In this document: piece after piece, positions 4,874 to 52,837 of the stretch
Numbering within the stretch: position 1 is the stretch's first letter
Layout: each line of letters opens with the position of its first letter
Assembly (NCBI RefSeq): GCF_028613635.1
Contig: NZ_JAQRMY010000002.1
Location: 62,001 to 126,000, forward strand
From: Devosia sp. ZB163
GTDB lineage: Bacteria > Pseudomonadota > Alphaproteobacteria > Rhizobiales > Devosiaceae
Reading direction: 5' to 3'
DNA length: 64,000 bases
Translations under genes and position numbers: made by a program
The notes under the pieces: generated by a model
The model's input: only the letters and a program-made list of their open reading frames with translations
What the model was told of the DNA's origin: nothing
Database searches by the model: none

Positions 4874-4901
4874 TCGGTCCTCCCAGACGCCCGGCAAGTC
4901 T

Positions 4902-4934: not shown

Positions 4935-4935
4935 G

Positions 4936-6531: not shown

Positions 6532-6538
6532 CAACGAG

Positions 6539-6565
6539 CTGGCCGCCGGCAACCCCGGCGGCCAG
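6539..6565 (+). terminator. Rho-independent terminator of metY
   Basis: Perfect 11-bp stem (6539-6549 CTGGCCGCCGG with 6555-6565) with a 5-base loop, followed by TTTCATTTC on the plus strand. It may also serve the gene converging from the right. Confidence 0.75.
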
Positions 6566-6567
6566 TT

Positions 6568-37869: not shown

Positions 37870-39097
37870 GACGCTGATGTCGCTCGTCGCCGACGAGGAG
37901 TTGGGCGACCTCCGGTTCGACTGGGAGTTATGGGCTCACGAACAGCAGAAGCCACCGGCGGGCGATTGGGCCACCTGGCTGCTGATGGGTGGACGCGGCG
38001 CGGGCAAGACCTGGGCCGGCGCAGAGTGGGTCCGAGGCCTCGCCGCTCGGGAGATCGGCCCCATAGCCATTGTCGGCGAAACGATGATTGAGGCGCTGCA
38101 GGTGATGGTGCGCGGCGAAAGCGGCATCCTTCGCGTGACGCCTCCCGAGGAGCGACCGATAGTAAGGGGGCAGACGCTGCGCTGGCCGAATGGCACGGAG
38201 GGACTCGTGCTGGGGGCAAGCGACCCTGAGCGCTTCCGTGGCCCGCAGTTCGCCGCCGCCTGGTGCGATGAGATCGGCAAGTGGACGGACGCCGAGGCGG
38301 CGTGGGACATGCTGCAGTTCGGCCTCAGGTTGGGCGACGAGCCAAGGCAGCTCGCGACAACGACGCCGCGATCGACAGCTCTGATCAAGCGGCTGCTGAC
38401 CGATCCACAGACCAGGGTGACGCGCATGCCGACCAGGGTGAACCAGAACAACCTGGCGCGAACCTTCTTCAAGGCCATCGTCGCTCGGTATGAGAACACC
38501 GTCCTCGGCCGGCAGGAGCTCGAGGGTGAGCTGATCGAGGATCGGCCGGACGCGCTGTGGACGCGGGGCATGTTCCGGCCGGACGAGGGTGCGGAACTGG
38601 GCCGGATCGTCGTGGCGGTGGATCCGCCGGTGACGGGACACAAGGGCTCGGACGCCTGCGGCATCGTCGTTGCGGCGCGGGCGGGGGAGGGGGCCGTGGT
38701 GCTCGCCGACCTCAGCTTTGCGCCGGCGCCGCCCGCGGCCTGGGCGGCCCGGGCGGTGGCGGCGTTCCATGAGCATGGCGCGGACTGCATCGTCGCCGAG
38801 GTGAACCAGGGCGGCGACCTCGTGAAGGCAGTGATCGCGCAGGAGGACGCCGACGTGCCGGTGCGGGCGGTTCACGCGAGCCGCGGCAAGTGGGTGCGGG
38901 CTGAGCCGGTGGCGGCGCTCTACGCCAACGGGCGCGTGGCGCACCGGCCGGGGCTGAGCGCGCTCGAGGATGAGATGTGTGCATTTGGGGCGGACGGGCT
39001 GGCGGACGGTCATTCGCCGGACCGGGTGGATGCGCTGGTCTGGGCGCTGACGGAACTGATGCTTGGCAGCGGGGAGCCGCGGGTGCGGGGGATTTGA
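37850..39097 (+). CDS. GTA large terminase (g2)
   Basis: 415 aa with ATG 37850 as preferred start (TTG 37835 and ATG 37877 also possible). Walker A is GGRGAGKT (residues 47-54) and Walker B AAWCDEIGKW (near 130); the C-terminal RNase-H-like nuclease carries acidic residues in VVAVDPPV (near 245), VAEVNQGG and SPDRVDALVW. It packages DNA into GTA heads by headful. Clear homologue of RcGTA gp2 by order and motifs. Confidence 0.95.
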   Translation: MSSRSAKTLMSLVADEELGDLRFDWELWAHEQQKPPAGDWATWLLMGGRGAGKTWAGAEWVRGLAAREIGPIAIVGETMIEALQVMVRGESGILRVTPPEERPIVRGQTLRWPNGTEGLVLGASDPERFRGPQFAAAWCDEIGKWTDAEAAWDMLQFGLRLGDEPRQLATTTPRSTALIKRLLTDPQTRVTRMPTRVNQNNLARTFFKAIVARYENTVLGRQELEGELIEDRPDALWTRGMFRPDEGAELGRIVVAVDPPVTGHKGSDACGIVVAARAGEGAVVLADLSFAPAPPAAWAARAVAAFHEHGADCIVAEVNQGGDLVKAVIAQEDADVPVRAVHASRGKWVRAEPVAALYANGRVAHRPGLSALEDEMCAFGADGLADGHSPDRVDALVWALTELMLGSGEPRVRGI

Positions 39098-39107
39098 GGG
39101 CTGGTGC

Positions 39108-39242
39108 GTGGGGCCGCCCCCACCCACCGGCTTCGCCGCCCCCCTCCCCACGAGGGGGAGGGAGACCTGACTGGGAGACCGGAGCCGCTTTCCCACCCCC
39201 TTGTGGGGAGGGGGGACCACGCGAAGCGTGGTGGGTGGGGCG
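39108..39242. repeat. Palindromic repeat pair between g2 and DUF559 gene
   Basis: Two inverted modules: CCCCCACCCACCGGCTTCGC...CTCCCC at the left and its near reverse complement at the right (CTTGTGGGGAGG...GTGGTGGGTGGGG). A single module of the same kind (39592-39642) lies on the other side of the DUF559 gene. Confidence 0.8.
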
Positions 39243-39243
39243 G

Positions 39244-39579
39244 TCAGGCCCTGCAGGCCGCCAAGATCGCAGCGTAGACGCCGTCGAGATTGGTCAGCAC
39301 GTCTCGGGTGGTGACGCGAAGCACGCGATAGCCCTGGGAGCGCAGGAATGCGTCACGGCGTGCGTCATACGCGATGGCGGCATCGTCGAAATGGCTGCCG
39401 CCATCGACTTCGACGACGAGCTTGGGGCCATGCGCGGCGAAATCGGCATAGTAGGGGCCGAGCGGCACCTGGCGTCGAAAGTGGTAGGGCTTCAGCTGTT
39501 CATGGCGCAGCGCCGTCCACAGCACGGCTTCGGCCGGGGACATCCGTCGTCGCATCGATCGGGCGCGGGTGATGCTCAA
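39244..39579 (-). CDS. DUF559 (Vsr/restriction endonuclease-like) protein inside the GTA cluster
   Basis: 111 aa from the TTG at 39579 (an ATG at 39555 is also possible; the frame runs upstream into a repeat). The DUF559 pattern is clear: ARSMRRRMSPAEAVLWTALR at the start, HFRRQVPLGPYYADFAAHGPKLVVEVDGGSHF in the middle and RRDAFLRSQGYRVLRVTTRDVLTNLDGV at the end. The V-E-V-D-G-G-x-H and D-R-R-D motifs match Vsr-like nuclease sites. It is antisense to the GTA genes and framed by the same palindrome, and its ribosome site GGAGG lies in the repeat. Target unknown. Confidence 0.85.
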   Translation of the reverse strand: MSITRARSMRRRMSPAEAVLWTALRHEQLKPYHFRRQVPLGPYYADFAAHGPKLVVEVDGGSHFDDAAIAYDARRDAFLRSQGYRVLRVTTRDVLTNLDGVYAAILAACRA

Positions 39580-39591
39580 CGGGTCGGTGCC

Positions 39592-39642
39592 TCCCCCACC
39601 CACCGGCTTCGCCGGTCCCCCCTCCCCACAAGGGGGAGGGAA
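39592..39642. repeat. Single palindromic module between DUF559 gene and portal gene
   Basis: CCCCCACCCACCGGCTTCGCC followed by CTCCCCACAAGGGGGAGGG. Same orientation as the left module at 39108. Carries the likely ribosome site of the DUF559 gene on its minus strand. Confidence 0.75.
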
Positions 39643-39685
39643 GTCCGACTGCGACAATTGAACGGAATCCGAACAAGGACAAGTC

Positions 39686-40840
39686 ATGCCCAACTGGTTC
39701 ACGCGCCTCGGCGCGGTGATTTCGGCTGCCGAGCGCAAATCGGGCGGGCCGCAGAGTTTGATGACGGTGACGCAGCTGGGCGAGGCGAGCTGGAGCCGGC
39801 GCGGCTTCGTGAGCCTTGCGAACGCGGGCTATGCCCGCAATCCGGTGGTGCATCGCTGCGTGCGGATGATCGCCGAGGCGGCGACGCGCGTGCCGCTGGT
39901 GGCGGAGGAGGGCGGCAGGCGGCTGAGCGAGCATCCGGTCGTGCGGTTGCTGGCGCGGCCGAACGCGCGGCAATCGGGCTCCGAGCTGCTTGAGGCGGTC
40001 TATGCCTACCTGCAGACGGCGGGGAATGCCTATGTCGCGGCGACGCTGATCGAGGGCGAGGTGCGCGAGCTGCATGTGCTGCGGCCCGACCGCGTGCGCG
40101 CCGTGATCGGTCGGGACGGATATCCGGCGGCTTATGCCTACACCGTCGGCGGGCGGACCGTGGAACTGAAGCTCGACAGCAAGCCCGTGGCGGGGCTGCT
40201 GCACCTGGCGCTGTTCCACCCGCTCGACGACCACTACGGCATGGCCCCGCTCGAGGCGGCGGCGCAGAGCCTCGACATCCACAATGCGGCGGCCGAGTGG
40301 AACAAGGCGCTGCTCGACAACGCGGCGCGGCCCAGCGGGGCGCTGGTCTATTCGGGCGGCAGCGGCACGTTGACCGAGGCGCAGTTCCGGCGGCTGAAGG
40401 AGGAGCTGGAGCAGGGGTTTTCCGGAGCGCGGAATGCCGGCCGGCCGCTGGTGCTCGAAGGCGGGCTCGACTGGAAGGCCATGGCGCTGACCCCGGCCGA
40501 GATGGATTTCATGGAACTGAAGCACGCCGCAGCGCGCGAGATCGCGCTGGCCTTCGGCGTGCCGCCGATGCTGCTGGGTATCCCCGGCGACAACACCTAT
40601 GCCAACTATGCCGAAGCCAACCGGGCCTTCTGGCGTTCGACAGTGATCCCGCTGGTGCGGCGCGTGGCCGACGACCTGAGCTTCTGGCTGGCGCCGGGGT
40701 TCGGTGGGGTGACGCTGGCGCCGGATGTCGACGGCGTCGAGGCTCTGGCCGAGGACCGGGCGGCGCTGTGGGCACGGGTTGGCGGTGCGGAGTTTCTCAC
40801 GGATGCGGAGAAGCGGGAGATGCTGGGGGTGGGGGCGTAG
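39686..40840 (+). CDS. GTA portal protein, HK97 family (g3)
   Basis: 384 aa. HK97-type portal pattern: NPVVHRCVRMIAEAATRVPL (near 53-72), LLARPNARQSGSELLEAVYAYLQTAGNAYV (near 90-119), and EIALAFGVPPMLLGIPGDNTYANYAEANRAFWR near 290-320. It forms the dodecameric portal at the head vertex. Position 3 of the GTA order. ATG 39686 preceded by AAGGACA. Confidence 0.95.
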   Translation: MPNWFTRLGAVISAAERKSGGPQSLMTVTQLGEASWSRRGFVSLANAGYARNPVVHRCVRMIAEAATRVPLVAEEGGRRLSEHPVVRLLARPNARQSGSELLEAVYAYLQTAGNAYVAATLIEGEVRELHVLRPDRVRAVIGRDGYPAAYAYTVGGRTVELKLDSKPVAGLLHLALFHPLDDHYGMAPLEAAAQSLDIHNAAAEWNKALLDNAARPSGALVYSGGSGTLTEAQFRRLKEELEQGFSGARNAGRPLVLEGGLDWKAMALTPAEMDFMELKHAAAREIALAFGVPPMLLGIPGDNTYANYAEANRAFWRSTVIPLVRRVADDLSFWLAPGFGGVTLAPDVDGVEALAEDRAALWARVGGAEFLTDAEKREMLGVGA

Positions 40841-40861
40841 CTCAGCTACGGAGTTGGTGCG

Positions 40862-40980
40862 TGGGGCACGCCCACCCTCAGTCCCTCCCCACAAGGGGGA
40901 GGGAGGCGATAGCTGCACGGCCTCGGTTCTTGCGTCTCCCTCCCCCTTGTGGGGAGGGATCAAGGGTGGGGGTGCCCCAC
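40862..40980. repeat. Palindromic repeat block after the portal gene
   Basis: Inverted arms TGGGGCACGCCCACCC and GGTGGGGGTGCCCCA enclose CCTCCCCACAAGGGGGAGGG and its inverse. Same CTCCCC-CTTGTGGGG family as at 39108. Confidence 0.8.
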
Positions 40981-40997
40981 GCTCGGCGCTACGGCGG

Positions 40998-41228
40998 CTA
41001 ACCCAGCTCTTCGACCGAGATATGCACGTCGAGGTCGGGCCAGTGGAGGCCTTCGCCCTTGCCGATGAACCGCCAGTTGAGGCGGGCGGCGGGGGAGCCG
41101 TCGCGGAGGCGAGGGTAGCGGGCGAGCGGGGCGATCAGCTCGCGGCCATCTTCGAGTTTCACTTCGATCGTTGCGGTGCCGAAGCGGACGTCGATGGCCC
41201 GGGAGCCGGTGTTGGTCGTCGTGCTCAT
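40998..41228 (-). CDS. DUF2442-domain protein inside the GTA cluster
   Basis: 76 aa from the ATG at 41228, with AGGAGGAGG 4-5 bases upstream; an upstream frame of 7 codons is disregarded. The pattern AIDVRFGTATIEVKLEDGRELIAPLARYPRL matches DUF2442, a small domain often paired with DUF4160 in candidate toxin-antitoxin loci. No DUF4160 partner is seen here. It is antisense to the GTA genes, between portal and g3.5-like genes, with repeats on both sides. Confidence 0.82.
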   Translation of the reverse strand: MSTTTNTGSRAIDVRFGTATIEVKLEDGRELIAPLARYPRLRDGSPAARLNWRFIGKGEGLHWPDLDVHISVEELG

Positions 41229-41322
41229 TGGTCCTCCTCCTAAGAGCATGCGGGAGCGAGGCTAGCTGCGTTCCGGGGGTACGAGAAGGTGGGAAACGCC
41301 ACCGCTCTCGTCACCACCTCGA

Positions 41323-41402
41323 TGTCATCCCAGCGAAAGCTGGGACCCATTTCGTCGCCCGCGCCTGCCGAGAGCTGGGTCCCTGCCTTCGCAGGGATGA
41401 CA
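41323..41402. repeat. Paired inverted repeat of the GTCATCCC type
   Basis: GTCATCCCAGCGAAAGCTGGG at the left and CCCTGCCTTCGCAGGGATGAC at the right are mutual inverse modules, each a hairpin by itself. The right module also occurs at 37018-37060. Confidence 0.75.
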
Positions 41403-41458
41403 GCCGGTGGGGTGGGCGATCCGGCGCATGACTGCGGACCAAAACCACGGAGGCCCTT

Positions 41459-41647
41459 ATGGACGAGCTCACCAAATCGATCGTGGCGCGGGGAGACCTG
41501 GCGCATCTGGCGCTGTTTGCCTGGGCGATGGGGACGACGGGCCTCCTTGTCTGGGCGCTCAAGGAGCTGGTGGCTGCCAATCGCCGCTTCAACGATTTCG
41601 TCAAAGAGATTTCGACGCTGAATCAATTGTTCCGCCGGGAGAAATAA
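41459..41647 (+). CDS. Small GTA membrane protein (g3.5-like)
   Basis: 62 aa with one membrane segment (residues 15-38, LAHLALFAWAMGTTGLLVWAL region) and an amphipathic C-terminus (VAANRRFNDFVKEISTLNQLF). Its place between portal and prohead protease corresponds to the small g3.5 of the Rhodobacter GTA; similarity itself cannot be tested here. ATG 41459 with CGGAGG upstream. Confidence 0.65.
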   Translation: MDELTKSIVARGDLAHLALFAWAMGTTGLLVWALKELVAANRRFNDFVKEISTLNQLFRREK

Positions 41648-41651
41648 GCCT

Positions 41652-41792
41652 ATGGGGGCAAAGGACAATCCTACTGGGAAACACGTAGCTGGAGAGGTGT
41701 TCCGGCAGTTCGCCTGGAACCTCGCCGGAACGCTGGCGAAGCCGGTACGCCGGCAGGTGCGGCCACGGCCCGTGGCGGGGAGCAAGGGCTGA
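41652..41792 (+). CDS. Small basic protein before the prohead protease
   Basis: 46 codons and stop, starting at ATG 41652, 4 bases after the previous stop. It reads MGAKDNPTGKHVAGEVFRQF at the start and ends in a basic tail (RRQVRPRPVAGSKG). Its stop overlaps the ATG of the protease gene (TGATG), as expected for a translated, coupled gene. Basic, no cysteine, no membrane segment. Not recognised; possibly a small capsid-assembly factor. Confidence 0.55.
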   Translation: MGAKDNPTGKHVAGEVFRQFAWNLAGTLAKPVRRQVRPRPVAGSKG

Positions 41793-42301
41793 TGCTGCCC
41801 ATTCCCATCGACGAGCGGGGGCGCTTTGCCGGCTATGCGAGCGTCTTCGGGCGGCTCGACGAGGCGGGCGACCTGGTGATGCCGGGCGCCTTTGCGAGAT
41901 CGCTGGCCCGGCGCGGGGCGAACAAGCTGCGGATGCTGTTCCAGCATGACCCCAAGGAGCCGGTCGGCACCTGGGACGTGGCGCGCGAGGACGGCTACGG
42001 GCTCTGGGTCGAGGGCCGGCTCGTGGCGGGCGTGCCGCGCGCCGATGCGTTGCGCCGGCTGATCGAAAAGCGCGCCATCGACGGGCTCTCGATAGGCTTT
42101 CGCACGGAGCGGGCGACGCGCGAGGCGCGCAACGGCCAGCGGCGCCTGTGGCAGATCGACCTGTGGGAGATCTCGATCGTGACGTTTCCGATGCTGGCCG
42201 ATGCCCGCATCGCCGCGGGCGGAGCCAAAGCTCCGTCCCTGTCCGGCACAGCCGCGACGGACCGGTCGCTCAAGGCGGCCATTTCGCTTCTGAAGCAATA
42301 G
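41792..42301 (+). CDS. GTA prohead protease, HK97 family (g4)
   Basis: 169 aa. Catalytic His in FQHDPKEPVGTW (H52) and Ser in DGLSIGF (S100), with WEISIVTFPMLADARI at the C-terminal end of the fold. It matures the capsid protein by cleavage. Length is near the family norm. Coupled to the small upstream gene, and followed by the capsid gene after 10 bases. Confidence 0.94.
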   Translation: MLPIPIDERGRFAGYASVFGRLDEAGDLVMPGAFARSLARRGANKLRMLFQHDPKEPVGTWDVAREDGYGLWVEGRLVAGVPRADALRRLIEKRAIDGLSIGFRTERATREARNGQRRLWQIDLWEISIVTFPMLADARIAAGGAKAPSLSGTAATDRSLKAAISLLKQ

Positions 42302-42311
42302 AGGACCACCA

Positions 42312-43538
42312 ATGACCGATCTGACGGACCGCCTTGAGAACAAGGCGTCGACTTCGGCTGCGCCCGATTCCGAGGGACTGCTGGGCGAACTGATGACCGC
42401 CTTCGAGGAGTTCAAGCGCACCAATGACGGGCGGCTCAAGGAGCTCGAGAAACGCGGTGCGGCGGACGCGCTGACCGAGGAAAAGCTCGGCCGCCTGAAC
42501 CAGGCGCTCGATGGCGCCAAGGCCGCGATGGACCGGCTGGCGCTCGACCGGGCCCGCCCGGCGCTCGAGGCGGGGCGGCCCGAGCTGGGCGATGAGTACA
42601 AGGACGCGTTCTCGGCCTATGTGAAGCGCGGCGAGGAGAAGGCGCTCTCGATCGGCTCGAACCCGGACGGCGGCTATCTCGTGCCGGCCGAGACCGAGAG
42701 CGAGATCCTGAAGCGGCTGACGGCGATCTCGCCGATCCGCGCCATCGCCTCGGTGCGCAATGTCAGCTCGAGCCTCTACAAGAAGCCGGTGACGCTGGCC
42801 GGCCCGGCGGTGGGCTGGGTGGCCGAGACGGCGAGCCGGCCGCAGACCGCGAGCCAGACCATCGACAGCATCGATTTCCCGACCGCCGAACTCTACGCCA
42901 TGCCGGCGGCGACGGCAGCCTTTCTCGATGACGCGGCGGTGGATGTGGGCCAGTGGATCGCCGACGAGGTGAACACCGCCTTCGCCGAGCAGGAGACGAC
43001 GGCGTTCGTTTCCGGCAACGGCACCAACAAGCCCAAGGGCTTCCTCGCCGAAACGCAGGTGGCGGAAGCGAGCTGGGCCTGGGATGCGATCGGCTATCTG
43101 GCGACCGGCGTTTCCGGCAACTGGCCGGCGGGCGACCAGAGCGACGTGCTGATCGACCTCGTCTATGCGCTGAAGGCCGGCTATCGCCAGAACGCCAGCT
43201 GGGTGATGAACCGCAGGACGCAGGGCGCGGTGCGCAAGCTGAAGGACGCCGACGGCAACTACCTGTGGTCGCCCGGAGCTGCGGCCGGGGCGAAGGCGAC
43301 ACTGCTCGGCTTCGACCTCGTCGAGGCCGAGGATATGCCCAATATCGGCGCCGGCACGACGCCCATCGCCTTCGGCGACTTCCGCCGCGGCTATCTCGTG
43401 GTGGACCGCATGGGCGTGAACGTGCTGCGCGACCCGTACTCGGCCAAGCCCTACGTGCTGTTCTACACGACCAAGCGCGTGGGTGGCGGCGTGCAGGACT
43501 TCGACGCGATCAAGCTGCTGAAGTTCTCGGCGAGCTGA
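42312..43538 (+). CDS. GTA major capsid protein, HK97 family (g5)
   Basis: 408 aa. Residues 1-95 form a charged helical scaffolding (delta) domain; the mature shell domain starts near 100 (ALSIGSNPDGGYLVPAETESEILKRL). Capsid signatures include GNGTNKPKGFL and WVMNRRTQGAVRKLKDADGNYLW, and the C-terminal FGDFRRGYLVVDRMG near 355. It builds the GTA head. Clear ribosome site (GAGG) before ATG. Confidence 0.96.
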   Translation: MTDLTDRLENKASTSAAPDSEGLLGELMTAFEEFKRTNDGRLKELEKRGAADALTEEKLGRLNQALDGAKAAMDRLALDRARPALEAGRPELGDEYKDAFSAYVKRGEEKALSIGSNPDGGYLVPAETESEILKRLTAISPIRAIASVRNVSSSLYKKPVTLAGPAVGWVAETASRPQTASQTIDSIDFPTAELYAMPAATAAFLDDAAVDVGQWIADEVNTAFAEQETTAFVSGNGTNKPKGFLAETQVAEASWAWDAIGYLATGVSGNWPAGDQSDVLIDLVYALKAGYRQNASWVMNRRTQGAVRKLKDADGNYLWSPGAAAGAKATLLGFDLVEAEDMPNIGAGTTPIAFGDFRRGYLVVDRMGVNVLRDPYSAKPYVLFYTTKRVGGGVQDFDAIKLLKFSAS

Positions 43539-43553
43539 CGGGTCGGAGCGCTC

Positions 43554-43666
43554 GGCGCCCCTCACCCTGACCCTCTCCCCAGCGGGGAGAGGGGACGCAC
43601 CTTGCGCGGGCGGTGCCCCTATCGCCCCCTCGCCCCTTTGGGGAGAGGGTTGGGGTGAGGGGCGCC
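43554..43666. repeat. RIME-like palindrome between g5 and g6
   Basis: Perfect 14-bp terminal inverted repeats GGCGCCCCTCACCC and GGGTGAGGGGCGCC enclose CTCTCCCC-AGCGGGGAGAGG and CCCCTTTGGGGAGAGGG. Related block at 46882-47020. Confidence 0.82.
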
Positions 43667-43695
43667 AAGACCACCCAACCTTTCAAGGACATCCA

Positions 43696-44256
43696 ATGAT
43701 TTCCTACCTTCTCGCGGGACCCGCGGAGGAGCCGGTTTCGCTTGCCGAGGCGCGGGCTTTCCTGAGGCTCGACGGCACAGGCGAGGACGGGCTGGTGACG
43801 ACGCTGATCGCGGCGGCGCGGCTGCACCTCGAGGGCACGACCGGGCGGGCGCTGGTGCGCCAGAGTTGGCGGCTGGTGCTCGATCGCTGGCCGGTGGAGC
43901 AGGCGCTGCGGCTGCCGGTTTCGCCGGTGCTCGAACTGGTCGCGGTTCGCGCCTTCGACGAGCAGGACGACGAGCACGCGATCGGGCTCGGACAGTTCCA
44001 GCTCGAGCCGATGGGGCTGATGTTGCCGGCGACGGTCGCGGGCATGCCGGTGCTGCGCGAGCGGCTCGCCATCGAGATCGACTATGACGCGGGCTATGGC
44101 GCTGCCGGCGACGTGCCGGCGGACCTGAAGCAGGCGCTGCTGGCGCTGGTGGCGCACTGGTTCGAGCATCGCGATGCGGCGGTGGTGGCCGCCTCGGGCG
44201 TGGCGCCGGCGGGGTTCGACCGGCTTGTCGCGCACTATCGCGCGGTGCGGCTGTGA
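43696..44256 (+). CDS. GTA head-tail connector protein (g6)
   Basis: 186 aa of the gp6-like connector/Phage_gp6 family: PVSLAEARAFLRLDGTGEDGLVTTLIAAARLHLEGTTGRALV near the N-terminus and DVPADLKQALLALVAHWFEHRD near the C-terminus. It joins portal and head-closure proteins. ATG at 43696 after AAGGA. Coupled to g7 by a GTGA overlap. Confidence 0.92.
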   Translation: MISYLLAGPAEEPVSLAEARAFLRLDGTGEDGLVTTLIAAARLHLEGTTGRALVRQSWRLVLDRWPVEQALRLPVSPVLELVAVRAFDEQDDEHAIGLGQFQLEPMGLMLPATVAGMPVLRERLAIEIDYDAGYGAAGDVPADLKQALLALVAHWFEHRDAAVVAASGVAPAGFDRLVAHYRAVRL

Positions 44257-44591
44257 CCGCGGCGCCGCCGGTGGGGAGCCTCACCGACCGCGTCTCGCTG
44301 CAGCGGCGCGAGACGACGGGCGAGGACGAGGGCGGGCACGCGGTGATCTTCGTGCCGGTGACCTCGCTCTGGGCCCGGGTCCGCGCGCTGAGCGGCCGGC
44401 AGGTCGGCGAGGCCGATGCGCGGGGCGTGGCGGTGAGCCATTCCGTGGTGCTGCGGTTCAGGACCGACGTGAAGGCGGGGGACCGCTTCGGCTATCGCGG
44501 GCGCTGGCTGAGCGTGGTTTCGGCGGTGGATCTGAACGGGCGCCGCGCCTGGCTGAGCTGCGCCTGCGTGGAGACGGGGGTGGTGGGGTGA
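44253..44591 (+). CDS. GTA head-closure/head-tail adaptor (g7)
   Basis: 112 aa with the Phage_H_T_join pattern: LTDRVSLQRRETTGEDEGGHAVIFVPVTSLWARVRALSGRQ and a C-terminal RFRTDVKAGDRFGYRGRWLSVVSAVDLNGRRAWLSCACVET. Start GTG 44253 overlaps the g6 stop. Confidence 0.92.
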   Translation: MTAAPPVGSLTDRVSLQRRETTGEDEGGHAVIFVPVTSLWARVRALSGRQVGEADARGVAVSHSVVLRFRTDVKAGDRFGYRGRWLSVVSAVDLNGRRAWLSCACVETGVVG

Positions 44592-44616
44592 GCGGGTTGG
44601 CATCGAGCGTGGGGCT

Positions 44617-44760
44617 CACCCCCACCCAGCTGCGCTACAGGCCGCTGGCCCTGGCTGCGCTACCCTCCCCCCAAGGGGGAGGGAGGGCGTTTGTGGCAAC
44701 GGCAGCGCCACACCGTCTCCCTCCCCTTGATGGGGAGGGATCAAGGGTGGGGTGGGGCGG
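44617..44760. repeat. Palindromic repeat block between g7 and g8
   Basis: GGGCTCACCCCCACCC... and ...GGGTGGGGTGGGGC arms with CCTCCCCCCAAGGGGGAGGG and CTCCCCTTGATGGGGAGGG inside. It ends only 6 bases before the g8 start and probably contributes its leader. Confidence 0.78.
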
Positions 44761-44766
44761 CGCGCC

Positions 44767-45135
44767 ATGACCCATCCGATCATCGAACTGCAGTCGGCAC
44801 TGGTGGCGAACCTCCGCGGCGACCCCGGGCTGGCCGGCGTCGGCATCTTCGATGCGCCGCCGCAGGCTGCGTCGCCGCCCTATGTCGCCATCGCCCGGCA
44901 CGACCTGCTGCCGCGCGATGGCGATGTGACGCTGCATGTTTGGGCCGGGCAGCCGAGCCGGAAGGCGGCGCTGGCGATTGCCGAGCGCGTCGTGGCGGTG
45001 GCCGAGGCGCTGACTGCCGTCGGGCTGGCCGTGACGCATATCCAGCACGAGCGGACCGATACGGCGATCGACGGCGAAACCGGGCAGGCGCGGGCGGCGG
45101 TGGCGGTGCGGTTCTTCTCGGAGCCGGTGGCTTAG
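44767..45135 (+). CDS. GTA tail completion protein, DUF3168 (g8)
   Basis: 122 aa from the ATG at 44767 (the frame is open upstream into the repeat). DUF3168 pattern: ELQSALVANLRGDPGLAGVGIFDAPPQAASPPYVAIARHDLLPRDGD, then LHVWAGQPSRKAALAIAERV and a final VAVRFFSEPVA. Corresponds to g8 in the Rhodobacter order. The normal ribosome site is missing; upstream bases belong to the repeat. Confidence 0.9.
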   Translation: MTHPIIELQSALVANLRGDPGLAGVGIFDAPPQAASPPYVAIARHDLLPRDGDVTLHVWAGQPSRKAALAIAERVVAVAEALTAVGLAVTHIQHERTDTAIDGETGQARAAVAVRFFSEPVA

Positions 45136-45155
45136 CCACTGAGCGCTCTGCAGCG

Positions 45156-45253
45156 CCTCCCTCCCCCTTGAGGGGAGGGATCGAGGGAGGGGGTCGTCCG
45201 GTGATCACCGATGGACCCCCACCCCCACCCCCTCCCCTCAAGGGGGAGGGGAG
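45156..45253. repeat. 98-bp palindromic repeat, left copy flanking g9
   Basis: CCTCCCTCCCCCTTGAGGGG... ending ...CAAGGGGGAGGGGAG, with GGTGATCACC in the middle. It differs at only 4 of 98 positions from the block at 45695-45792, in the same orientation on the other side of g9. Confidence 0.85.
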
Positions 45254-45280
45254 CCGGATAGTTCACTTGGGAGACGCGAC

Positions 45281-45694
45281 ATGACCGCCCAGAGCGGCAA
45301 GGACATGCTGTTGAAGCTCGACCAGAGCGGGTCGGGGAGTTTCGTCACGGTGGCGGGGCTGCGCTCGCGGAGCCTCGCGTTCAATGCGGCGGCGATCGAC
45401 GTGACCGACGCGGAGAGTGCCGGGCGCTGGCGCGAACTGCTGGCGGGCGGCGGGATCAAGCGGGCGGCGGTGGCCGGGTCGGGGATCTTCAAGGACCAGG
45501 CGTCGGACGCGACGATCCGCTCGCTGTTCTTTGCGGGAACGATCCGCAACTGGCAGCTGATCCTGCCCGATTTCGGCACGGTCGAGGGACCGTTCCAGAT
45601 CGTGGCGCTGGAGTTTGCCGCGGATCACGCCGGCGAGGTGACGTTCGAACTGGCGCTGGAGAGTGCCGGGCAGCTGAGCTTTGCGGTGGCCTAG
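45281..45694 (+). CDS. GTA major tail protein (g9)
   Basis: 137 aa, major tail tube family (TP901-1-like): MTAQSGKDMLLKL at the N-terminus, FVTVAGLRSRSLAFNAAAIDVTDAESAGRWRELLAG and C-terminal EVTFELALESAGQLSFAVA. Corresponds to g9. ATG 45281 follows GGGAGACGCGAC. It is flanked on both sides by nearly identical 98-bp repeats. Confidence 0.93.
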   Translation: MTAQSGKDMLLKLDQSGSGSFVTVAGLRSRSLAFNAAAIDVTDAESAGRWRELLAGGGIKRAAVAGSGIFKDQASDATIRSLFFAGTIRNWQLILPDFGTVEGPFQIVALEFAADHAGEVTFELALESAGQLSFAVA

Positions 45695-45792
45695 CCTCCC
45701 TCCCCCTTGAGGGGAGGGATCGAGGGAGGGGGTAGTTCGGTGATCACCGATGGACCCCCACCCCCAACCCCTCCCCTCAGGGGGGAGGGGAG
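45695..45792. repeat. 98-bp palindromic repeat, right copy flanking g9
   Basis: Starts directly after the g9 stop. Same orientation as 45156-45253 and identical at 94 of 98 positions. Confidence 0.85.
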
Positions 45793-45819
45793 CGAGGGTT
45801 CTGTGCAGGAGGAGAGGTA

Positions 45820-46134
45820 ATGCCAAACATTCAGCGCGGTGAGATATCGGCCGTGTTCGAGGGTGAGGAGCGGGTGCTGTGCCTGACGCTGGGGGCGCTG
45901 GCGGAGCTGGAGGCGCGGCTGCAGGCGGGGGATCTCGTGGGCTTGAGCGAGCGGTTCAGCTCGGGGCGGGTTTCGGCGCGGGACCTGACGGCGATCATCG
46001 GGGCGGGCTTACGCGGCGGTGGCAATGCCATCACCGACGATGACCTAGCGCGGATGGCGATCGAGGGCGGGCTGAAGGGCGCGGCGGAAATCGCGGCGCG
46101 GCTGCTGCGCGCGACGTTCGGGGAGGCGGCATGA
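45820..46134 (+). CDS. GTA tail assembly chaperone-like protein (g10)
   Basis: 104 aa, the GTA gp10 family (tail tube protein-like/GTA_TIM-neighbour): RGEISAVFEGEERVLCLTLGALAELEARLQAGDLVGLSERF and DLTAIIGAGLRGGGN. Strong ribosome site AGGAGGAGAGG before the ATG. Overlaps g10.1 by 4 bases. Confidence 0.9.
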   Translation: MPNIQRGEISAVFEGEERVLCLTLGALAELEARLQAGDLVGLSERFSSGRVSARDLTAIIGAGLRGGGNAITDDDLARMAIEGGLKGAAEIAARLLRATFGEAA

Positions 46135-46328
46135 AAGCGTTTCCGTGGGACGAGGCGATGCGGTTCGGTTTCGGCGTGCTGGGGCTTTCGAGCAGGGAGT
46201 TCTGGGGGCTGACGCCGAGGGAGCTGGCGGCGGCCTTCGAGGCGCGGGCAGGGCGGGCGCGGGGCGTGGTGCCGGGGCGCGAAATGCTCGGCCGGCTGAT
46301 GGCGGCCTTTCCTGACGAGGTGACGTGA
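46131..46328 (+). CDS. GTA phage tail assembly chaperone (g10.1)
   Basis: 65 aa, the small DUF2376/tail assembly chaperone family: FPWDEAMRFGFGVLGLSSREFWGLTPRELAAAFEAR. Overlaps g10 by 4 bases and its stop overlaps the start codon of g11. Such pairs before the tape measure gene are usual in GTA and lambda-like tails, though here without a visible frameshift signal. Confidence 0.9.
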   Translation: MKAFPWDEAMRFGFGVLGLSSREFWGLTPRELAAAFEARAGRARGVVPGREMLGRLMAAFPDEVT

Positions 46329-46864
46329 TGGCGGATCCGTTTGGCGACAGCCTCGCGGGGCTCGACGACGTATCGGCGGAACTCGAGCGGATCGGCGACC
46401 TGGCGGACGGCGTTGGCAAGTCGCTGAGCCGGGCGTTTCGCGGTGCGGTGCTCGACGGCAAGTCGCTGAAATCGGTGCTGGGCGAGGTGGCGGGGGCCTT
46501 TGCCGAGATTGCGCTGAAGGCGGCGTTCAAGCCAGTTGCCGGGCTGGTGAGCGGAGCGATCGAGAGCCTGTTCCAGATGACCAACCCGGCGGTGACGCCG
46601 TTCGCCAAGGGCGGCGTGCTGGCGAGCCCGGCGTATTTTCCGCTCGGGCGCGGACTGGGGCTGGCGGGTGAGGCCGGGGCCGAAGCGATCCTGCCGCTGG
46701 CGCGCGGATCGGACGGGCGGCTGGGTGTCGCCGGCGGTGGCGGCGGGGCGGTGAACGTGACGTTCAACGTGACGGCGAGTGATGCGCGGAGTTTTGCGGC
46801 GAGCGAGGCGGAGTTGAGCGCGATGCTGCTGCGGGCGGTTCGGCGGGGGACGCGGGGGAGTTAG
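46328..46864 (+). CDS. GTA tail tape measure protein (g11), short
   Basis: 178 aa from ATG 46328 (a GTG one codon earlier is possible). Helical N-terminal half (DVSAELERIGDLADGVGKSLSRAFRGAV...) and a Gly-rich C-terminal part with FAKGGVLASPAYFPLGRGLGLAGEAGAEAILPLARG, typical of GTA gp11 and the phage tape measure C-terminal domain. It sets tail length; the short size agrees with the short GTA tail. Confidence 0.92.
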   Translation: MADPFGDSLAGLDDVSAELERIGDLADGVGKSLSRAFRGAVLDGKSLKSVLGEVAGAFAEIALKAAFKPVAGLVSGAIESLFQMTNPAVTPFAKGGVLASPAYFPLGRGLGLAGEAGAEAILPLARGSDGRLGVAGGGGGAVNVTFNVTASDARSFAASEAELSAMLLRAVRRGTRGS

Positions 46865-46881
46865 TCCGTTCAGTGCGCTTG

Positions 46882-47020
46882 GCTGCCCCTCACCCTGGCC
46901 CTCTCCCCTCGGAGGGCGCTATCGCACCTCCTAGGAGGGGAGAGGGGACGCACTTTTGAACTGCCGGTGCCACATCGCCCCCTCGCCCCTCTGGGGAGAG
47001 GGTTGGGGTGAGGGGCGGCC
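46882..47020. repeat. RIME-like palindrome between g11 and g12
   Basis: Arms GCCCCTCACCC and GGGGTGAGGGGC enclose CTCTCCCCT and GGAGAGGG hairpins. Related to the block at 43554-43666. The inner part also has CACCTCCTAGGAGGGG, a small extra palindrome. Confidence 0.78.
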
Positions 47021-47039
47021 ACACGCGAGGATATCTCAG

Positions 47040-47660
47040 ATGACCTTCCATCCCAGCCGCTTTCCCCTCGACATATCGCTTGGCGCCCGTGGGGGGCCTG
47101 AGCGCGCCACCGACATCGTGACGCTCGCCTCCGGGCGCGAGGAGCGCAACAGCCGGTGGGCGCATTCGCGGCGGCGGTACAATGCCGGCTATGGGGTGAA
47201 GTCGCGGGCCGACATGCAGGCGGTGCTGGCGTTCTTCGAGGAGCGGCGGGGGCGGTTCCATGCGTTCCTTTGGCGCGATGGGCTCGACCATTCATCGAAC
47301 GGGACCGAGGCGCCGACGGCGCTGGACCAGATGATCGGGACGGGCGATGGCGTACGTGTTTCCTTCGATCTGACTAAGCGTTATGGCGCCGAGTTCGACC
47401 CCTACCTGAGGCCGATAACGAAGCCGGTGGCGGGGTCGGTGATGGTGGCGGTGGGGGGCGTCGTGACCACGGACTTCGAGGTCGATCCGCTGACCGGGAG
47501 GGTGACCTTCGAGGCGGCGCCGGGGGCGGGAGCCGTGGTGACGGCGGGGTTCCTGTTCGATGTGCCGGTGCGGTTCGACATCGACCGGCTGGATGTGGAA
47601 CTGACCAGCTTCGATGCGGCCGAGGTGCCGGCGATCCCGCTGATCGAGGTGCGCGAATGA
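47040..47660 (+). CDS. GTA distal tail protein, DUF2460 (g12)
   Basis: 206 aa from the ATG at 47040 (a longer frame runs back into the repeat). Family pattern TFHPSRFPLDISLGARGGPERATDIVTLASGREERNSRW, ADMQAVLAFFEERRGRFHAFLWRDGLDH and C-terminal ITKPVAG...DVPVRFD. Forms the distal tail ring between tube and baseplate. Overlaps g13 by 4 bases. Confidence 0.94.
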   Translation: MTFHPSRFPLDISLGARGGPERATDIVTLASGREERNSRWAHSRRRYNAGYGVKSRADMQAVLAFFEERRGRFHAFLWRDGLDHSSNGTEAPTALDQMIGTGDGVRVSFDLTKRYGAEFDPYLRPITKPVAGSVMVAVGGVVTTDFEVDPLTGRVTFEAAPGAGAVVTAGFLFDVPVRFDIDRLDVELTSFDAAEVPAIPLIEVRE

Positions 47661-48547
47661 GGGCGCTGGAGGCGGGATTTGCCGCCCACATTGCGAGCGG
47701 CGCGACGACGCTGGCCACCTGCTGGCGGATCGTGCGGAGCGACGGGCTGGTGCTGGGTTTCACCGACCATGACGTGGCGCTGGCGTTCGGCGACACACAG
47801 TATCTGCCGGCGCACGGGCTCGACGGCGGAGAGCGGACCGGGAAACTCGGCGCGAGCGTGGATACGACCGAGGTCGCCGGCGTGCTGCACTCGGACGCCA
47901 TATCGGAGGAGGACATCCTGCTCGGCCGGTTCGACGGGGCGGAGGTGGAGACCTGGCGGGTCAACTGGCGCGACGTGAACCAGCGGGTGCTGCTGGGGCG
48001 GGCGACCATCGGCGAGATTGTGCGCGAGGACGGGGTGTTCCGCGCCGAGCTGCGCTCGGGTCAACACGCGATCAACCAGCCGAAGGGGCGGATCTACCAG
48101 GCGCTGTGCGACGCGGAACTGGGGGATGCCCGCTGCCGGGTGAACCTCGACGATCAGGACTATCGCGCCGAGGCGGCGGTGGTCGGGGTGCGGGATCGGT
48201 TCCGGATCGTGATCGGGGGGATCGAGGGTTTTGAGCCGGGCTGGTTCGCCTTTGGCGTTGCGGCCTGGGGGAGCGGCAGGCGCGAAGGCCTGCGGGACCG
48301 GGTGGTGACGCATGAGCGGCTGGGTGGCGTGGACGTGCTGGGCTTCGGCTCGGCGGTGGGGGAATGGGTCGATGCGGCGGATCAGCTGGTGCTGACGGCG
48401 GGGTGCGACAGGCGGTTTGCGACATGCCGGGAGCGGTTCGGCAACGTGGCGAACTTCCGCGGCTTTCCGCACATCCCGGGCACCGACTTCGTACTGCGCT
48501 ACCCGCGCGAGGGAGCGGTGATGGACGGGCGGACGCTGGTCGGATGA
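47657..48547 (+). CDS. GTA baseplate hub protein, DUF2163 (g13)
   Basis: 296 aa: N-terminal DUF2163 (LATCWRIVRSDGLVLGFTDHDVALAFG..., near 20-45) and C-terminal beta domain with KGRIYQALCDAELGDARCRVNLDD and RFATCRERFGNVANFRGFPHIPGTD. Four conserved Cys (in CDAELGDARC and CDRRFATC) are typical, and bind iron-sulfur in the known hub. Corresponds to g13. Overlaps g14 by 4 bases. Confidence 0.94.
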   Translation: MRALEAGFAAHIASGATTLATCWRIVRSDGLVLGFTDHDVALAFGDTQYLPAHGLDGGERTGKLGASVDTTEVAGVLHSDAISEEDILLGRFDGAEVETWRVNWRDVNQRVLLGRATIGEIVREDGVFRAELRSGQHAINQPKGRIYQALCDAELGDARCRVNLDDQDYRAEAAVVGVRDRFRIVIGGIEGFEPGWFAFGVAAWGSGRREGLRDRVVTHERLGGVDVLGFGSAVGEWVDAADQLVLTAGCDRRFATCRERFGNVANFRGFPHIPGTDFVLRYPREGAVMDGRTLVG

Positions 48548-48960
48548 GCGCCCAGATCGTGGCGGCGGCCCGGGCCTGGGTCGGCACGCCCTACCGGCAC
48601 CGGGCGGCAACGCTCGGGGCAGGGTGCGACTGCCTCGGGCTGCTCGTCGGGGTGTGGCGGGCGGTTTATGGGACGGAGCCACCGGAGCTGCCGAACTACC
48701 GGGCGGACTGGCGGGATGCCTCGCATGCGGCGGAGCTGGAGGCGCTGGCCGGGCAGTGGCTGGCGCCGGGGGCGATGGGTCCCGGGGCGGTGCTGCTGTT
48801 CCGCATGGGGGCAGCGGCGTTGCCGCGGCATTGCGGGATCATGGTGGGCGAGGGGCGGTTCGTCCACGCGCAGGAGCGGCTGGGCGTGGTGGAGGGGAAC
48901 CTCACGGATGGGTGGCGGAAGCGGGTGGCGCGGGTGCTGGCGTTTCCGACACTGGGCTAG
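48544..48960 (+). CDS. GTA cell-wall peptidase, NlpC/P60 family (g14)
   Basis: 138 aa from the ATG at 48544. NlpC/P60 active-site Cys in GAGCDCLGLLVG (C30), His in LPRHCGIMVGEG (near 95) and preceding ARAWVGTPYRHRA. It cuts peptidoglycan during DNA delivery. Coupled to g13. Confidence 0.93.
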   Translation: MSAQIVAAARAWVGTPYRHRAATLGAGCDCLGLLVGVWRAVYGTEPPELPNYRADWRDASHAAELEALAGQWLAPGAMGPGAVLLFRMGAAALPRHCGIMVGEGRFVHAQERLGVVEGNLTDGWRKRVARVLAFPTLG

Positions 48961-49159: not shown

Positions 49160-51103
49160 ATGGCAACTCTCGCACTACCCGTCGCCGGGCAGTTCATTGG
49201 TGGAGCGATTGGTGGGCCGATCGGCGCGACTATTGGCAGGGCGCTGGGGGCGCTGGCTGGGTCGGTGGTCGATCAGGCGCTGTTTGCGGAGAAGCCGCAG
49301 CGGGCGCCCGGGGTGGATATCCGGATTTCGGGGTCGGCCGAGGGCGGGGCGGTGCCGCGGCTCTATGGCTGGAACCGGCTGGCCGGCAACATCATCTGGG
49401 CGACCGAGCTCGAGGAGATTGCCGGCGAGGACTCGGGCGCCAAGGGCACGGCGCCGGAGGCCGAAGAGCGGCAGGTCGTGGCGAGCTTTGCCGTTGGGCT
49501 GTGCGAGGGCGAGGTGCACCGGCTCGGACGCGTCTGGGCCGATGGGCAGGTGCTCGAGACCGAGGGGATGACGATCCGCTTCTATCGCGGAACGGAGACG
49601 CAGCAGGCGGACAGCCTGATGGAGGCCAGGCAGGGAAGCGACGCCGCGCCGGCCTATCGCGGGCTCTGCTACCTCGTGTTCGAGCGGCTGCCGCTCGGCC
49701 AGTTCGGCAACCGCATCCCCAACATCACGGTGGAACTCTGTCGCGTGGTCGGCGAGCTTGAGCCGATGATCCGCTCGGTGACGGTGATCCCGGGGGCGAC
49801 CGAGTTCGGCTACGACCCGGTGCCGCGCGTCCGCGTGACGGGGCGGGGCGCCGTGGGGCGCGAGAACGCCCATGCTTCGGCGCTGGTGAGCGACTGGACA
49901 CTGTCGATCGACGAGCTGGCAGATCTCTGTCCGAACCTCGATCACGTTTCGCTTGTCGTGGCCTGGTTCGGCGACGATCTGCGCTGCGGCGAATGCTCGA
50001 TCCGACCCAAGGTCGAGGCGGCCAGCCGCACGATCAAGGGCACGAGCTGGAGCGTTGCGGGGCTGACGCGGGCGACGGCGCAGGTGGTTTCGAGCCACGG
50101 CGGCGGGCCGGCCTATGGCGGGACGCCTTCCGATGCGGCGGTGCGGGCGGTGATCGCCGACCTCAAGGCGCGCGGGCTCGAGGTGACGATCTACCCGATG
50201 CTGCTGATGGACATCCCGGCGGGCAACCCGATGGGGCAGCCGGCCTATCCCTGGCGCGGGCGGATCGCGCCGGTGGGCGGCGGCGCTGCGGCGCAGGTCG
50301 CAGAGTTCGTCGGCTCGGCCGGTGGGTGGGGCTACCGCCGTTTCGTCCGGCACTACGCCCGGCTCGCGGACGAGGCGGGGGCGGACTCGCTGGTGATCGG
50401 CTCCGAGATGATCGGCATGACCACGGCGCGCGGTACGGGCGGGTTCCCGTTCGTCGATGCGCTGGTGACGCTGGCGGCGGAGGCAAGGGCGCTGGCGCCT
50501 TCGGTGGAGCTGACCTACGCGGCGGACTGGAGCGAGTATCACGGCTACCAGCCGCCGGACGCGCCGGGAGACAAGTGGTTTCATCTCGATCCGCTCTGGG
50601 CCAGCGACGACATCGCGATGGTGGGGATCGACAACTACATGCCGATCGCCGACTGGCGCGACGGCGAGGACGGGCCGGACGCGGGGAGCGATGGGCCCTA
50701 TGGCCTCGCCCATCTCGAGGCGGGGATCGACGGCGGCGAGGGGTTCGACTGGTACTATGCCAGTGCCTCCGACCGGCTGGCGGGCGCGCGAAGCCCGATC
50801 AGCGACGGGGCGCATGGCGAGCACTGGGTCTGGCGGTTCAAGGATATCGCCGGCTGGTGGGGCAACGCGCATCACGACCGGGTCGGCGGAGTGCGCGCGG
50901 CGAGCCCGACGGCCTGGGTGCCGGGGATGAAGCCGATCTGGTTCACGGAACTCGGGTGCGGAGCGGTCGACAAGGGCGCCAACCAGCCGAACATGTTTCC
51001 GGACGCAAAGAGCGCCGAGGACGGGCGGCCGCATTTCTCGACGGGCGCGCCGGATGCGCTGATGCAGCGCCAGTTCCTGCGCGCGCACCTCAACCACTGG
51101 TAG
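49160..51103 (+). CDS. GTA baseplate/host-recognition protein g15, N-terminal part
   Basis: 647 aa ending at TAG 51101-51103. Residues 1-280 match the N-terminal baseplate domain (VDIRISGSAEGGAVPRLYGWNRLAGNIIWATELEE), and about 290-640 the GTA TIM-barrel domain (RRFVRHYARLADEAGADSLVIGSEMIGMTT, MKPIWFTELGCGAVDKGANQPN). In the family these continue as one protein of about 1200-1300 aa. Here the frame stops right after the TIM barrel (RAHLNHW) and the missing part follows in the same frame from 51113. Good ribosome site (GGAGACATC) before ATG 49160. Confidence 0.88.
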   Translation: MATLALPVAGQFIGGAIGGPIGATIGRALGALAGSVVDQALFAEKPQRAPGVDIRISGSAEGGAVPRLYGWNRLAGNIIWATELEEIAGEDSGAKGTAPEAEERQVVASFAVGLCEGEVHRLGRVWADGQVLETEGMTIRFYRGTETQQADSLMEARQGSDAAPAYRGLCYLVFERLPLGQFGNRIPNITVELCRVVGELEPMIRSVTVIPGATEFGYDPVPRVRVTGRGAVGRENAHASALVSDWTLSIDELADLCPNLDHVSLVVAWFGDDLRCGECSIRPKVEAASRTIKGTSWSVAGLTRATAQVVSSHGGGPAYGGTPSDAAVRAVIADLKARGLEVTIYPMLLMDIPAGNPMGQPAYPWRGRIAPVGGGAAAQVAEFVGSAGGWGYRRFVRHYARLADEAGADSLVIGSEMIGMTTARGTGGFPFVDALVTLAAEARALAPSVELTYAADWSEYHGYQPPDAPGDKWFHLDPLWASDDIAMVGIDNYMPIADWRDGEDGPDAGSDGPYGLAHLEAGIDGGEGFDWYYASASDRLAGARSPISDGAHGEHWVWRFKDIAGWWGNAHHDRVGGVRAASPTAWVPGMKPIWFTELGCGAVDKGANQPNMFPDAKSAEDGRPHFSTGAPDALMQRQFLRAHLNHW

Positions 51104-51112
51104 GGCGACCCC

Positions 51113-52837
51113 ATGGTGGGGCGGATCTCGCTCTGGACCTGGGACGCGCGGCCGTGGCCGGCGTTTCCGACCGATACGGCGAGCTGGGCCGATGGCGAGA
51201 ACCATGCGGCGGGACACTGGCTGACCGGCCGGCTGGGCGCGCTGGCGCCCGATGAGCTGGCCCGGGCTGTCGCCGATGATTTCGGTGTCGGGCTGGGAGC
51301 GGCGGATGTAGCGGGGCCGCTGATCCATGGGGTGGCGGTCGAGGGCGTGGTGAGCTGGCGCGATGCGACGGCACCGGCGCTCGCGGCGGCGGGTCTCTCC
51401 GTGCGGGATGGCGCCGATGGGCTGGAGCTTGTGGGGCCGGACCTGCTTCCGGCCGTGGTGCTCGATGGCGAGGATCTGGTGAAGGACGAGGGCCCGGTGC
51501 GTTCGCGCCGGCGGCCCGACCCATCGGCGACGGTGGCGCGGCTGGCCGTGGGCTATGTCGATCGCGAGCGCGAGTATCTGACGGGAACCGTAACCGCGAT
51601 GCGGCCCGAGGGAGCGGCGGTGGCCGGGGAGAATACGGGGCTGGTGCTGGAGGCGGCAGCGGCGCGCGGGGTGGCCGAGCAGCTGCTGCGGGCGACCGAT
51701 GCGCGGCGCGAGACGCTGGAGTTCGACCTGCCGCCTTCACAACTGGCTCTCGAGGTGGGCGATGTGATCGCGCTTGCCGGGGAGGGGGAGGGACCGTTCG
51801 AGATTGCCGAGATCCGTGACGGGCGGAGCCGCCGTGTCTCGGCGCGGGCGCTGCCGCCACTGGTCAGGGCCGCGGTGCTGAGCGACCGGCCGGCGCGCGC
51901 ACCGACAGCGCCGGCTCCGATGGCCGAGCCTGCCCTGATCGCGGCGCACCTGCCGCCCGACCCGGCGACGCCGGATCGTTCGTGGCTGCTGCTCGCCGCC
52001 TATGCCAGCCCTTGGCCGGGTGAGGTGGACGTGCAGCTGGTGGCGACGGGGTCGCGCATCGCGCGGCTGGCGCGGCCGGCGGCGATGGGCGAACTGTTGA
52101 CGCCGCTGACGGCGGGGCCTCTGCATGTGCGGTACCGGCGGAGCATCGAGATCGAGCTCAGCGGCGGGCATATCGCGCCGGTGGATTTAGAGGCGGCGCT
52201 CGCGGGCGCGAACCGGATCGCGGTCGAGACCGACGCGGGCGAGTGGGAGGTGCTGGGCTTTGCCGGCGCCGAACTGATTGCGCCCGGCCGCTATCGGCTC
52301 ACCGAACTGCTGCGCGGGCTCGGGGGCAGCGATGTGGCGATGGGACCGGCGGCTGTGGGCAACCGGCTCGTCGTGCTCGACGGCAATGTCGTGGTGCTGC
52401 CGGTCGAGCCGGACTGGCTCGGCGGGGAATTGGCACTGCGGGCCTTTGCCGGGAGACACGACGGGACGGGCACGGCCTTCGGGGCGACGGCGTCGCTGGG
52501 GCCGGTGCTGCCGCTGCCGCCGGTGCATCTGAGGGCCGTGCGCGGGGCAGGGGGCGACGTGAGCCTCAGCTGGCTGCGGCGCAGCCGAGCCGATGCCGGC
52601 GCCTGGGCTGCGGTGGAAGTTCCGCTCGAGCACGTGCCCGAGGCCTACCGGGTGACCATCCTCGATGGGCCGACGCCGGTGCGGACCATCGCGGCAGCGG
52701 CAGCGGGCGCGACCTACACGGCCGCGCAGCAGGCCGCAGATTTCGGCGCGCCGCCGGCCTCGTTCGACTTCACCGTAGAGCAACTGAGCCCGGTCTTCGG
52801 GCCGGGACATCCGGGGGCCGGCACCTTCCATGCGTAA
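51113..52837 (+). CDS. GTA baseplate/host-recognition protein g15, C-terminal part
   Basis: 574 aa in the same frame as the N-terminal part, after an in-frame TAG and three codons (GGC GAC CCC). It starts with MVGRISLWTWDARPWPAFPTDTASW, which in relatives directly continues the TIM-barrel part, then the phage tail_3-type and rcc01698-type C-terminal domains. Internal initiation at ATG 51113 with TAGGG upstream is conceivable, so a two-chain protein is possible, as are a pseudogene or a sequencing error. Ends FHA, overlapping a downstream frame. Confidence 0.8.
   Translation: MVGRISLWTWDARPWPAFPTDTASWADGENHAAGHWLTGRLGALAPDELARAVADDFGVGLGAADVAGPLIHGVAVEGVVSWRDATAPALAAAGLSVRDGADGLELVGPDLLPAVVLDGEDLVKDEGPVRSRRRPDPSATVARLAVGYVDREREYLTGTVTAMRPEGAAVAGENTGLVLEAAAARGVAEQLLRATDARRETLEFDLPPSQLALEVGDVIALAGEGEGPFEIAEIRDGRSRRVSARALPPLVRAAVLSDRPARAPTAPAPMAEPALIAAHLPPDPATPDRSWLLLAAYASPWPGEVDVQLVATGSRIARLARPAAMGELLTPLTAGPLHVRYRRSIEIELSGGHIAPVDLEAALAGANRIAVETDAGEWEVLGFAGAELIAPGRYRLTELLRGLGGSDVAMGPAAVGNRLVVLDGNVVVLPVEPDWLGGELALRAFAGRHDGTGTAFGATASLGPVLPLPPVHLRAVRGAGGDVSLSWLRRSRADAGAWAAVEVPLEHVPEAYRVTILDGPTPVRTIAAAAAGATYTAAQQAADFGAPPASFDFTVEQLSPVFGPGHPGAGTFHA

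What the first reader, a model, noticed from the sequence alone, without database searches (positions are those of the whole stretch)
49160..52837. g15 of the GTA is cut by an in-frame TAG exactly at a domain border
The two frames 49160-51103 and 51113-52837 are in the same phase; only one TAG (51101-51103) and three codons separate them. The break falls after the TIM-barrel domain (RAHLNHW) and just before LWTWDARPWPAFP, which relatives carry as one chain of about 1200-1300 aa. Possible explanations: a recent nonsense mutation in a decaying GTA, a true gene fission with re-initiation at ATG 51113 (TAGGG just upstream), stop readthrough, or an assembly error.
Basis: partly seen in the sequence, partly recalled or inferred. 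Interest (0 to 1): 0.75.

Follow-up and report, generated by a model that had tools for sequence, protein, structure and literature searches.

The report
Stop codon breaks a tail-tip gene
In one Devosia bacterium a single stop codon interrupts the tail-tip gene of an otherwise complete gene transfer agent, most likely a recent mutation that disables the particle; this is a new example of a known kind of decay.

Summary
In detail: 49160-51103 and 51113-52837 are in one phase, split by one TAG at 51101-51103. The gene is g15 (megatron, Rcc01698 family) of an RcGTA-type cluster in a Devosia genome. The TAG is private to this genome among those held: none of the 11 other g15-bearing genomes of the genus has it. 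The "domain border" is wrong: the TAG lies inside the GH113-like TIM barrel, just before its last strand, about 40 residues before the peripheral/central border of RcGTA. g2-g14 are unbroken, and the part after the stop shows no extra decay, so the stop is recent, or the C part is still made, or the base is wrong. TAG is an ordinary terminator here, and no tRNA-CUA was seen among 43 tRNAs. Best reading: a recent nonsense mutation that disables the GTA. Re-initiation at ATG 51113 and a base error remain open. A distant genome, G143, has its own TAG in the same loop. Seen in passing: a g2::g15 fusion with one exact joint in five genomes that replaces the GTA cluster, with at least two origins.

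The parts
49160..51103 (+). N-terminal part of g15 (megatron), 647 aa: by homology the regions called iris/penetration and adhesin-like in RcGTA, then the TIM barrel up to the helix before its last strand
   Evidence: GTA_TIM 390-647, profile 1-263 of 299; 82% identical to G017 and to G001 over the whole length; domain names from PMC7296036 passages
50327..51100 (+). part of the GTA_TIM domain before the stop
51101..51103 (+). in-frame TAG in the loop before the last strand of the barrel
   Evidence: model of relative L034
51113..52837 (+). C-terminal part of g15, 574 aa from ATG 51113: last strand of the barrel, then by homology the central and fibre-binding regions
51102..51115 (+). AGGG seven bases before ATG 51113, a possible re-initiation site
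   Evidence: duplex energy -6.0; mean of 15 starts that I assigned -6.8; 26% of 182 other ATGs score as well or better
51359..51817 (+). Phage-tail_3 match in the C part
52079..52372 (+). Rcc01698_C match in the C part
37835..48960 (+). g2 to g14 of the GTA cluster, collinear and unbroken (terminase, portal, protease, capsid, tail genes, hub, peptidase)
   Evidence: gene numbers by order and homology; g1 not assessed

Best explanation
The TAG is a recent nonsense mutation, seen in this Devosia genome only, in an otherwise complete GTA. Translation ends inside the TIM barrel of the peripheral domain, so the N product lacks the last barrel strand and the whole central and fibre-binding regions. 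Without a full baseplate protein the GTA probably yields tailless or non-delivering particles; the genome would be an early, 'cheater'-like stage of GTA loss. Shown: the TAG, its absence in the relatives held, the unbroken g2-g14, its place in the fold, the lack of extra decay after it. Inferred: recent date, loss of function, no useful C product.
For: TAG absent in the 11 other g15-bearing genomes of the genus; no stop in residues 1-955 in any of the 80 IMG/VR loci, all of which span the place. g2-g14 unbroken. Window-branch changes in the N part 30 non-synonymous / 61 synonymous and in the first 315 C codons 21 / 44 (Fisher p 1.0), so no relaxation after the stop. TAG ends 6 of the 13 genes g2-g14; none of 43 tRNA matches has the anticodon for it. 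GTA lesions and loss are common around it: 7 of 19 genus genomes have no match, G001 has a frameshift and G008 a TGA in g15, G002 a frame change in g13. Pseudogenised and lost GTAs are reported and discussed as possible cheater lineages (PMC10883770, passages).
Against: The only lesion found is this one, and an ATG with a usable Shine-Dalgarno lies 9 bases after it. In the test with G017 and outgroup G002 the C part has relatively more non-synonymous changes on the window branch than the N part (38/61 against 24/64), but G017's branch shows the same tilt (21/32 against 14/38), so it tells of the region, not of the stop. An independent TAG in the same loop in G143 hints that a break there may be tolerated. 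No other strain of the species and no reads could be looked at.
Confidence: 0.6

Rival explanations
1. Working fission: ribosomes stop at TAG and re-initiate at ATG 51113; the C chain brings the last barrel strand and joins the N chain in the baseplate, as split TIM barrels can (recalled).
For: ATG 9 bases after the stop, duplex energy -6.0; a C part without extra decay; the cut lies in a loop of variable length between a helix and the last strand; G143 has an independent TAG in the same loop with a 607-codon C part open after it.
Against: 26% of 182 other ATGs have as good a Shine-Dalgarno; the Met is already an internal residue in G001 and G017, so the site was not made for this; in G143 the first in-frame ATG lies 54 bases after the TAG and five congeners run through.
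Confidence: 0.16
2. Sequencing or assembly error at one base.
For: Only one genome of the species is held; no reads could be checked; a single lesion with no decay is what an error would look like.
Against: The assembly is long (10 contigs, 99.99% complete) and g2-g14 have no break.
Confidence: 0.19
3. Stop readthrough gives some full-length megatron.
For: Frame open on both sides; C part without extra decay.
Against: No tRNA with anticodon CTA among 43 tRNA matches (the list lacks tRNA-Ile, so it is not complete); TAG ends 6 of 13 GTA genes; no unusual RNA structure after it (z -0.04).
Confidence: 0.05

Closest known systems
Megatron Rcc01698 (g15) of RcGTA
   Same: Homologous along the N part, the TIM barrel and the central region (6tba_8A, query 1-959 to chain 1-1034, by way of the relative L034); same place after g14
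   Different: One chain of 1304 residues in RcGTA (domains in PMC7296036, passages); here a stop at about RcGTA residue 704, inside the peripheral domain 230-744
Megatron of siphophage R4C (8gtc_M)
   Different: A phage protein, one chain of 1447 residues
GH113 beta-mannanases
   Different: About 20% identity; no glycosidase activity shown here
Pseudogenised alphaproteobacterial GTAs (PMC10883770, passages)
   Same: A lesion in a GTA cluster in a group where others lost it
   Different: Here one nonsense codon in an otherwise unbroken cluster

Membership tests
RcGTA-type gene transfer agent cluster | Collinear head-tail genes g2 to g15 | tested here: met
   (g15 in two frames; g1 not assessed)
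RcGTA-type gene transfer agent cluster | Packages and transfers random host DNA | not testable with these tools
   needs culture
Megatron (Rcc01698) family | GTA_TIM, Phage-tail_3 and Rcc01698_C in order | tested here: met
   spread over two frames
Megatron (Rcc01698) family | One uninterrupted chain | tested here: not met
Naturally split g15 | The split is shared by relatives | tested here: not met
   0 of 11 other g15-bearing genus genomes; one distant genome, G143, has its own TAG there
Decayed GTA pseudogene | Relaxed selection after the lesion or further lesions in the cluster | tested here: not met
   a recent lesion would not show it yet
Recoded TAG (suppression) | A tRNA with anticodon CTA | tested here: inconclusive
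   none among 43 matches, list not complete
GH113 glycoside hydrolase | Family fold | tested here: met
   for relative L034's barrel
GH113 glycoside hydrolase | Mannanase activity | not testable with these tools
   needs assay

The most novel reading that the evidence does not exclude
The loop before the last strand of the megatron barrel is a tolerated breakpoint: two lineages (this Devosia and G143) independently make megatron as two chains that complete a TIM barrel between them in the baseplate, so a split tail-tip protein still assembles.
Probability: 0.1. Interest if true: 0.65.

Novelty: new member of a known kind. Interest (0 to 1): 0.35.

Why it matters
If the TAG is real and null, this strain is a GTA non-producer caught just after the first hit, with an otherwise unbroken cluster and relatives whose g15 is open, which suits tests of the cheater idea for GTA loss. 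If both chains are made, it would show a split barrel working in a tail tip. The side result, one exact g2::g15 fusion in five genomes where the GTA was lost, may matter more than the stop itself.

Tried and rejected
Rejected: TAG as a sense codon (6 of 13 genes g2-g14 end in TAG; no tRNA-CUA seen). A structured readthrough signal (z -0.04). A second full copy of g15 in the genome (one match for each half). A genus-wide split. The short frames of family f30 (L110, L111 and L118 from G171, G065 and G243 looked at) as natural splits at this point: they carry the whole TIM domain and end after it, and seem to lie in another gene setting (ORF lists only). The RNA-family tool, the viral fold library, NCBIfam, PADLOC and PHROGs were not used.

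Chance of the G143 coincidence: distinct genomes with an internal stop in g15 residues 1-955 were the window, G008, G045, G127 and G143 (G315's stop at residue 27, in L114, is set aside as it lies at the edge of a frame change). Two of five at neighbouring residues of the query is suggestive, not significant: by a rough hand estimate made after seeing the data, about 0.03-0.1. The loci include repeats of one genome: 226 loci had hits and 222 spanned residues 600-690; one search found 170 different sequences among 213 loci by another cut-off. G045, G127 and G143 came in partly because their rows showed a stop or a short frame, so the five are not a random sample.

Own mistake: L034 (G001) was taken at first as an intact reference. 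Its frame is shifted after about residue 962, so the tail of that query is out of frame; searches used it whole. Results past residue 960 from those calls are not used. Searches used residues 201-700 only, and and 89 residues 1-955.

Full report
What is there. The two frames are in one phase with one TAG at 51101-51103. Part one (647 aa) holds GTA_TIM cut at profile position 263 of 299; part two (574 aa from ATG 51113) holds Phage-tail_3 and Rcc01698_C. The window lies in a 4.59-Mb, 10-contig genome. Each half has one place in the genome. g2 to g14 lie upstream, collinear and unbroken against several relatives; g2-g8 could be compared with six of the 11 genus relatives only, as the other contigs end. 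g1 was not assessed.

Is the stop shared? Of 19 genomes held of the genus, 12 have a g15 match, the window included; among the 15 genomes of best quality it is 11. None of the other 11 has a stop at this place (one search shows sense residues in each; one search counts no stop in residues 1-955 in ten of them and one in G008, the match of G002 starting at residue 122). G008's stop is a TGA at residue 406. G001 looks open for 1251 codons but is shifted at C-half residue 316. So 3 of the 12 have a lesion in g15. G001 is a MAG by its title and G008 an assembly of 320 contigs, 85% complete, so base errors there are possible. Further off, 204 of 297 genomes of the order and 32 of 318 of the class match GTA_TIM (which share some genomes); not all rows are printed, and among those printed only G143 shows a stop inside the domain; only the window does.

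How old is it? With G001 and G017 as references, changes private to the window are 30 non-synonymous / 61 synonymous in the N part and 21 / 44 in the first 315 codons of the C part (G001 is out of frame after that). With G017 and outgroup G002 over both parts they are 24/64 and 38/61, and for G017 itself 14/38 and 21/32. The C part changes faster in both lineages; nothing marks the window as relaxed. The stop is recent, or the C part is still selected, or the base is wrong.

Mechanism. TAG ends 6 of the 13 genes g2-g14 and no tRNA-CUA was seen among 43 tRNA matches (tRNA-Ile is missing from that list, so it is not complete). Re-initiation is possible: the ATG is 9 bases on, duplex energy -6.0, against a mean of -6.8 for 15 starts that I assigned and -4.3 for 182 other ATGs, 26% of which do as well or better. 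The simplest reading is loss of function. Pseudogenised and lost GTAs are reported and discussed as cheater lineages (PMC10883770, passages). I found no paper on a broken g15 in Devosia: searches (GTA with Devosia, 3 papers; GTA with rcc01698, 7; 0; 18; 1; 110, 12 listed), seen as listings apart from the passages named.

A second stop in the same loop. G143, of another family of the order, has a TAG two residues on in the same loop, with a 607-codon C part open after it, while five other genomes of its genus run through. This is the best hint that a break there is tolerated, but it rests on two genomes.

A side finding that may be worth more. In L033 (Devosia MAG), L052 (Thermohalobaculum xanthum), G253, G290 and G480 an open frame joins the terminase ATPase of g2, up to the Walker B residues DE, to g15 at the glutamate of the barrel strand WFTE, then on into the C half. 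The frames are 418 to 831 codons long; G290's is cut by its contig end. G480's is itself broken: its homology goes on in another frame after the stop, which speaks against use there. In G253 the fusion sits in the GTA's own place, with the same three genes behind it as in the window. No match to the window's capsid was found in G253, G290, G480 or G224; L033's and L052's genomes have only a 37% match elsewhere. A tree of the C part alone puts L033 beside intact G211, L052 beside intact Limibaculum, G253 with G290, and G480 with Rhodobacterales. L052 and the Devosiaceae cases are firmly apart, so there are at least two origins; L033 and G253/G290 are a third unless G211 regained its GTA, and G480, a partial and long row on a weaker fork, may be a fourth. 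The g2 part was not put in a tree. G224 has another joint. Between the joint sites of intact clusters only 12-14 of 24 bases agree (6 of 9 clusters measured, 3 not matched by my pattern). Short shared words alone hardly explain one joint each time; selection for the fusion product is possible. G253 and G290 differ at 36% of 703 residues with omega 0.23 (dS 1.28, near saturation, and selection before the fusion counts in it). Labels such as Walker B are recalled. None of the 80 IMG/VR loci, nor any viral contig scanned, has the joint pattern.

Noticed in passing
L033:9242-11722, L052:9248-11743, L185:11528-12784 (G480), L186:7092-9461 (G253), L187:6191-8308 (G290): An in-frame fusion of the g2 ATPase (to Walker B DE) with g15 from barrel strand WFTE onward, same joint in all five, where the GTA cluster between is missing; at least two independent origins, by parsimony three or four; G480's copy is broken further on.
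   Followed up: partly
L188 (G224), g2 match 4558-5298 and g15 match 5393-7135: A different g2::g15 joint (g2 to residue 244, g15 from about 653), nested among congeners with a whole g15, so a recent second kind of deletion.
   Followed up: partly
L109 (G143), TAG near 4670: In-frame TAG in the same barrel loop of g15; five congeners run through.
   Followed up: partly
L034/L061 (G001) near 6877: g15 frame shift hidden by a long open frame in the other phase; open-frame length alone misleads here.
   Followed up: yes
L064, L067, L068, L069 (G018, G004, G009, G006): The hub protein g13 gives no match for about residues 163-248 or 183-248, close to the oligosaccharide-binding domain 168-249 of RcGTA.
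   Followed up: no
L072 (G002) 12924-13804; L064 (G018) g11: g13 in two frames in G002; one in-frame stop in the g11 match of G018.
   Followed up: no
G381:C1:1672792-1673700: The search lists an open frame of 32612 residues around a GTA_TIM match in a 1.7-Mb genome; not looked at, may be masked sequence.
   Followed up: no
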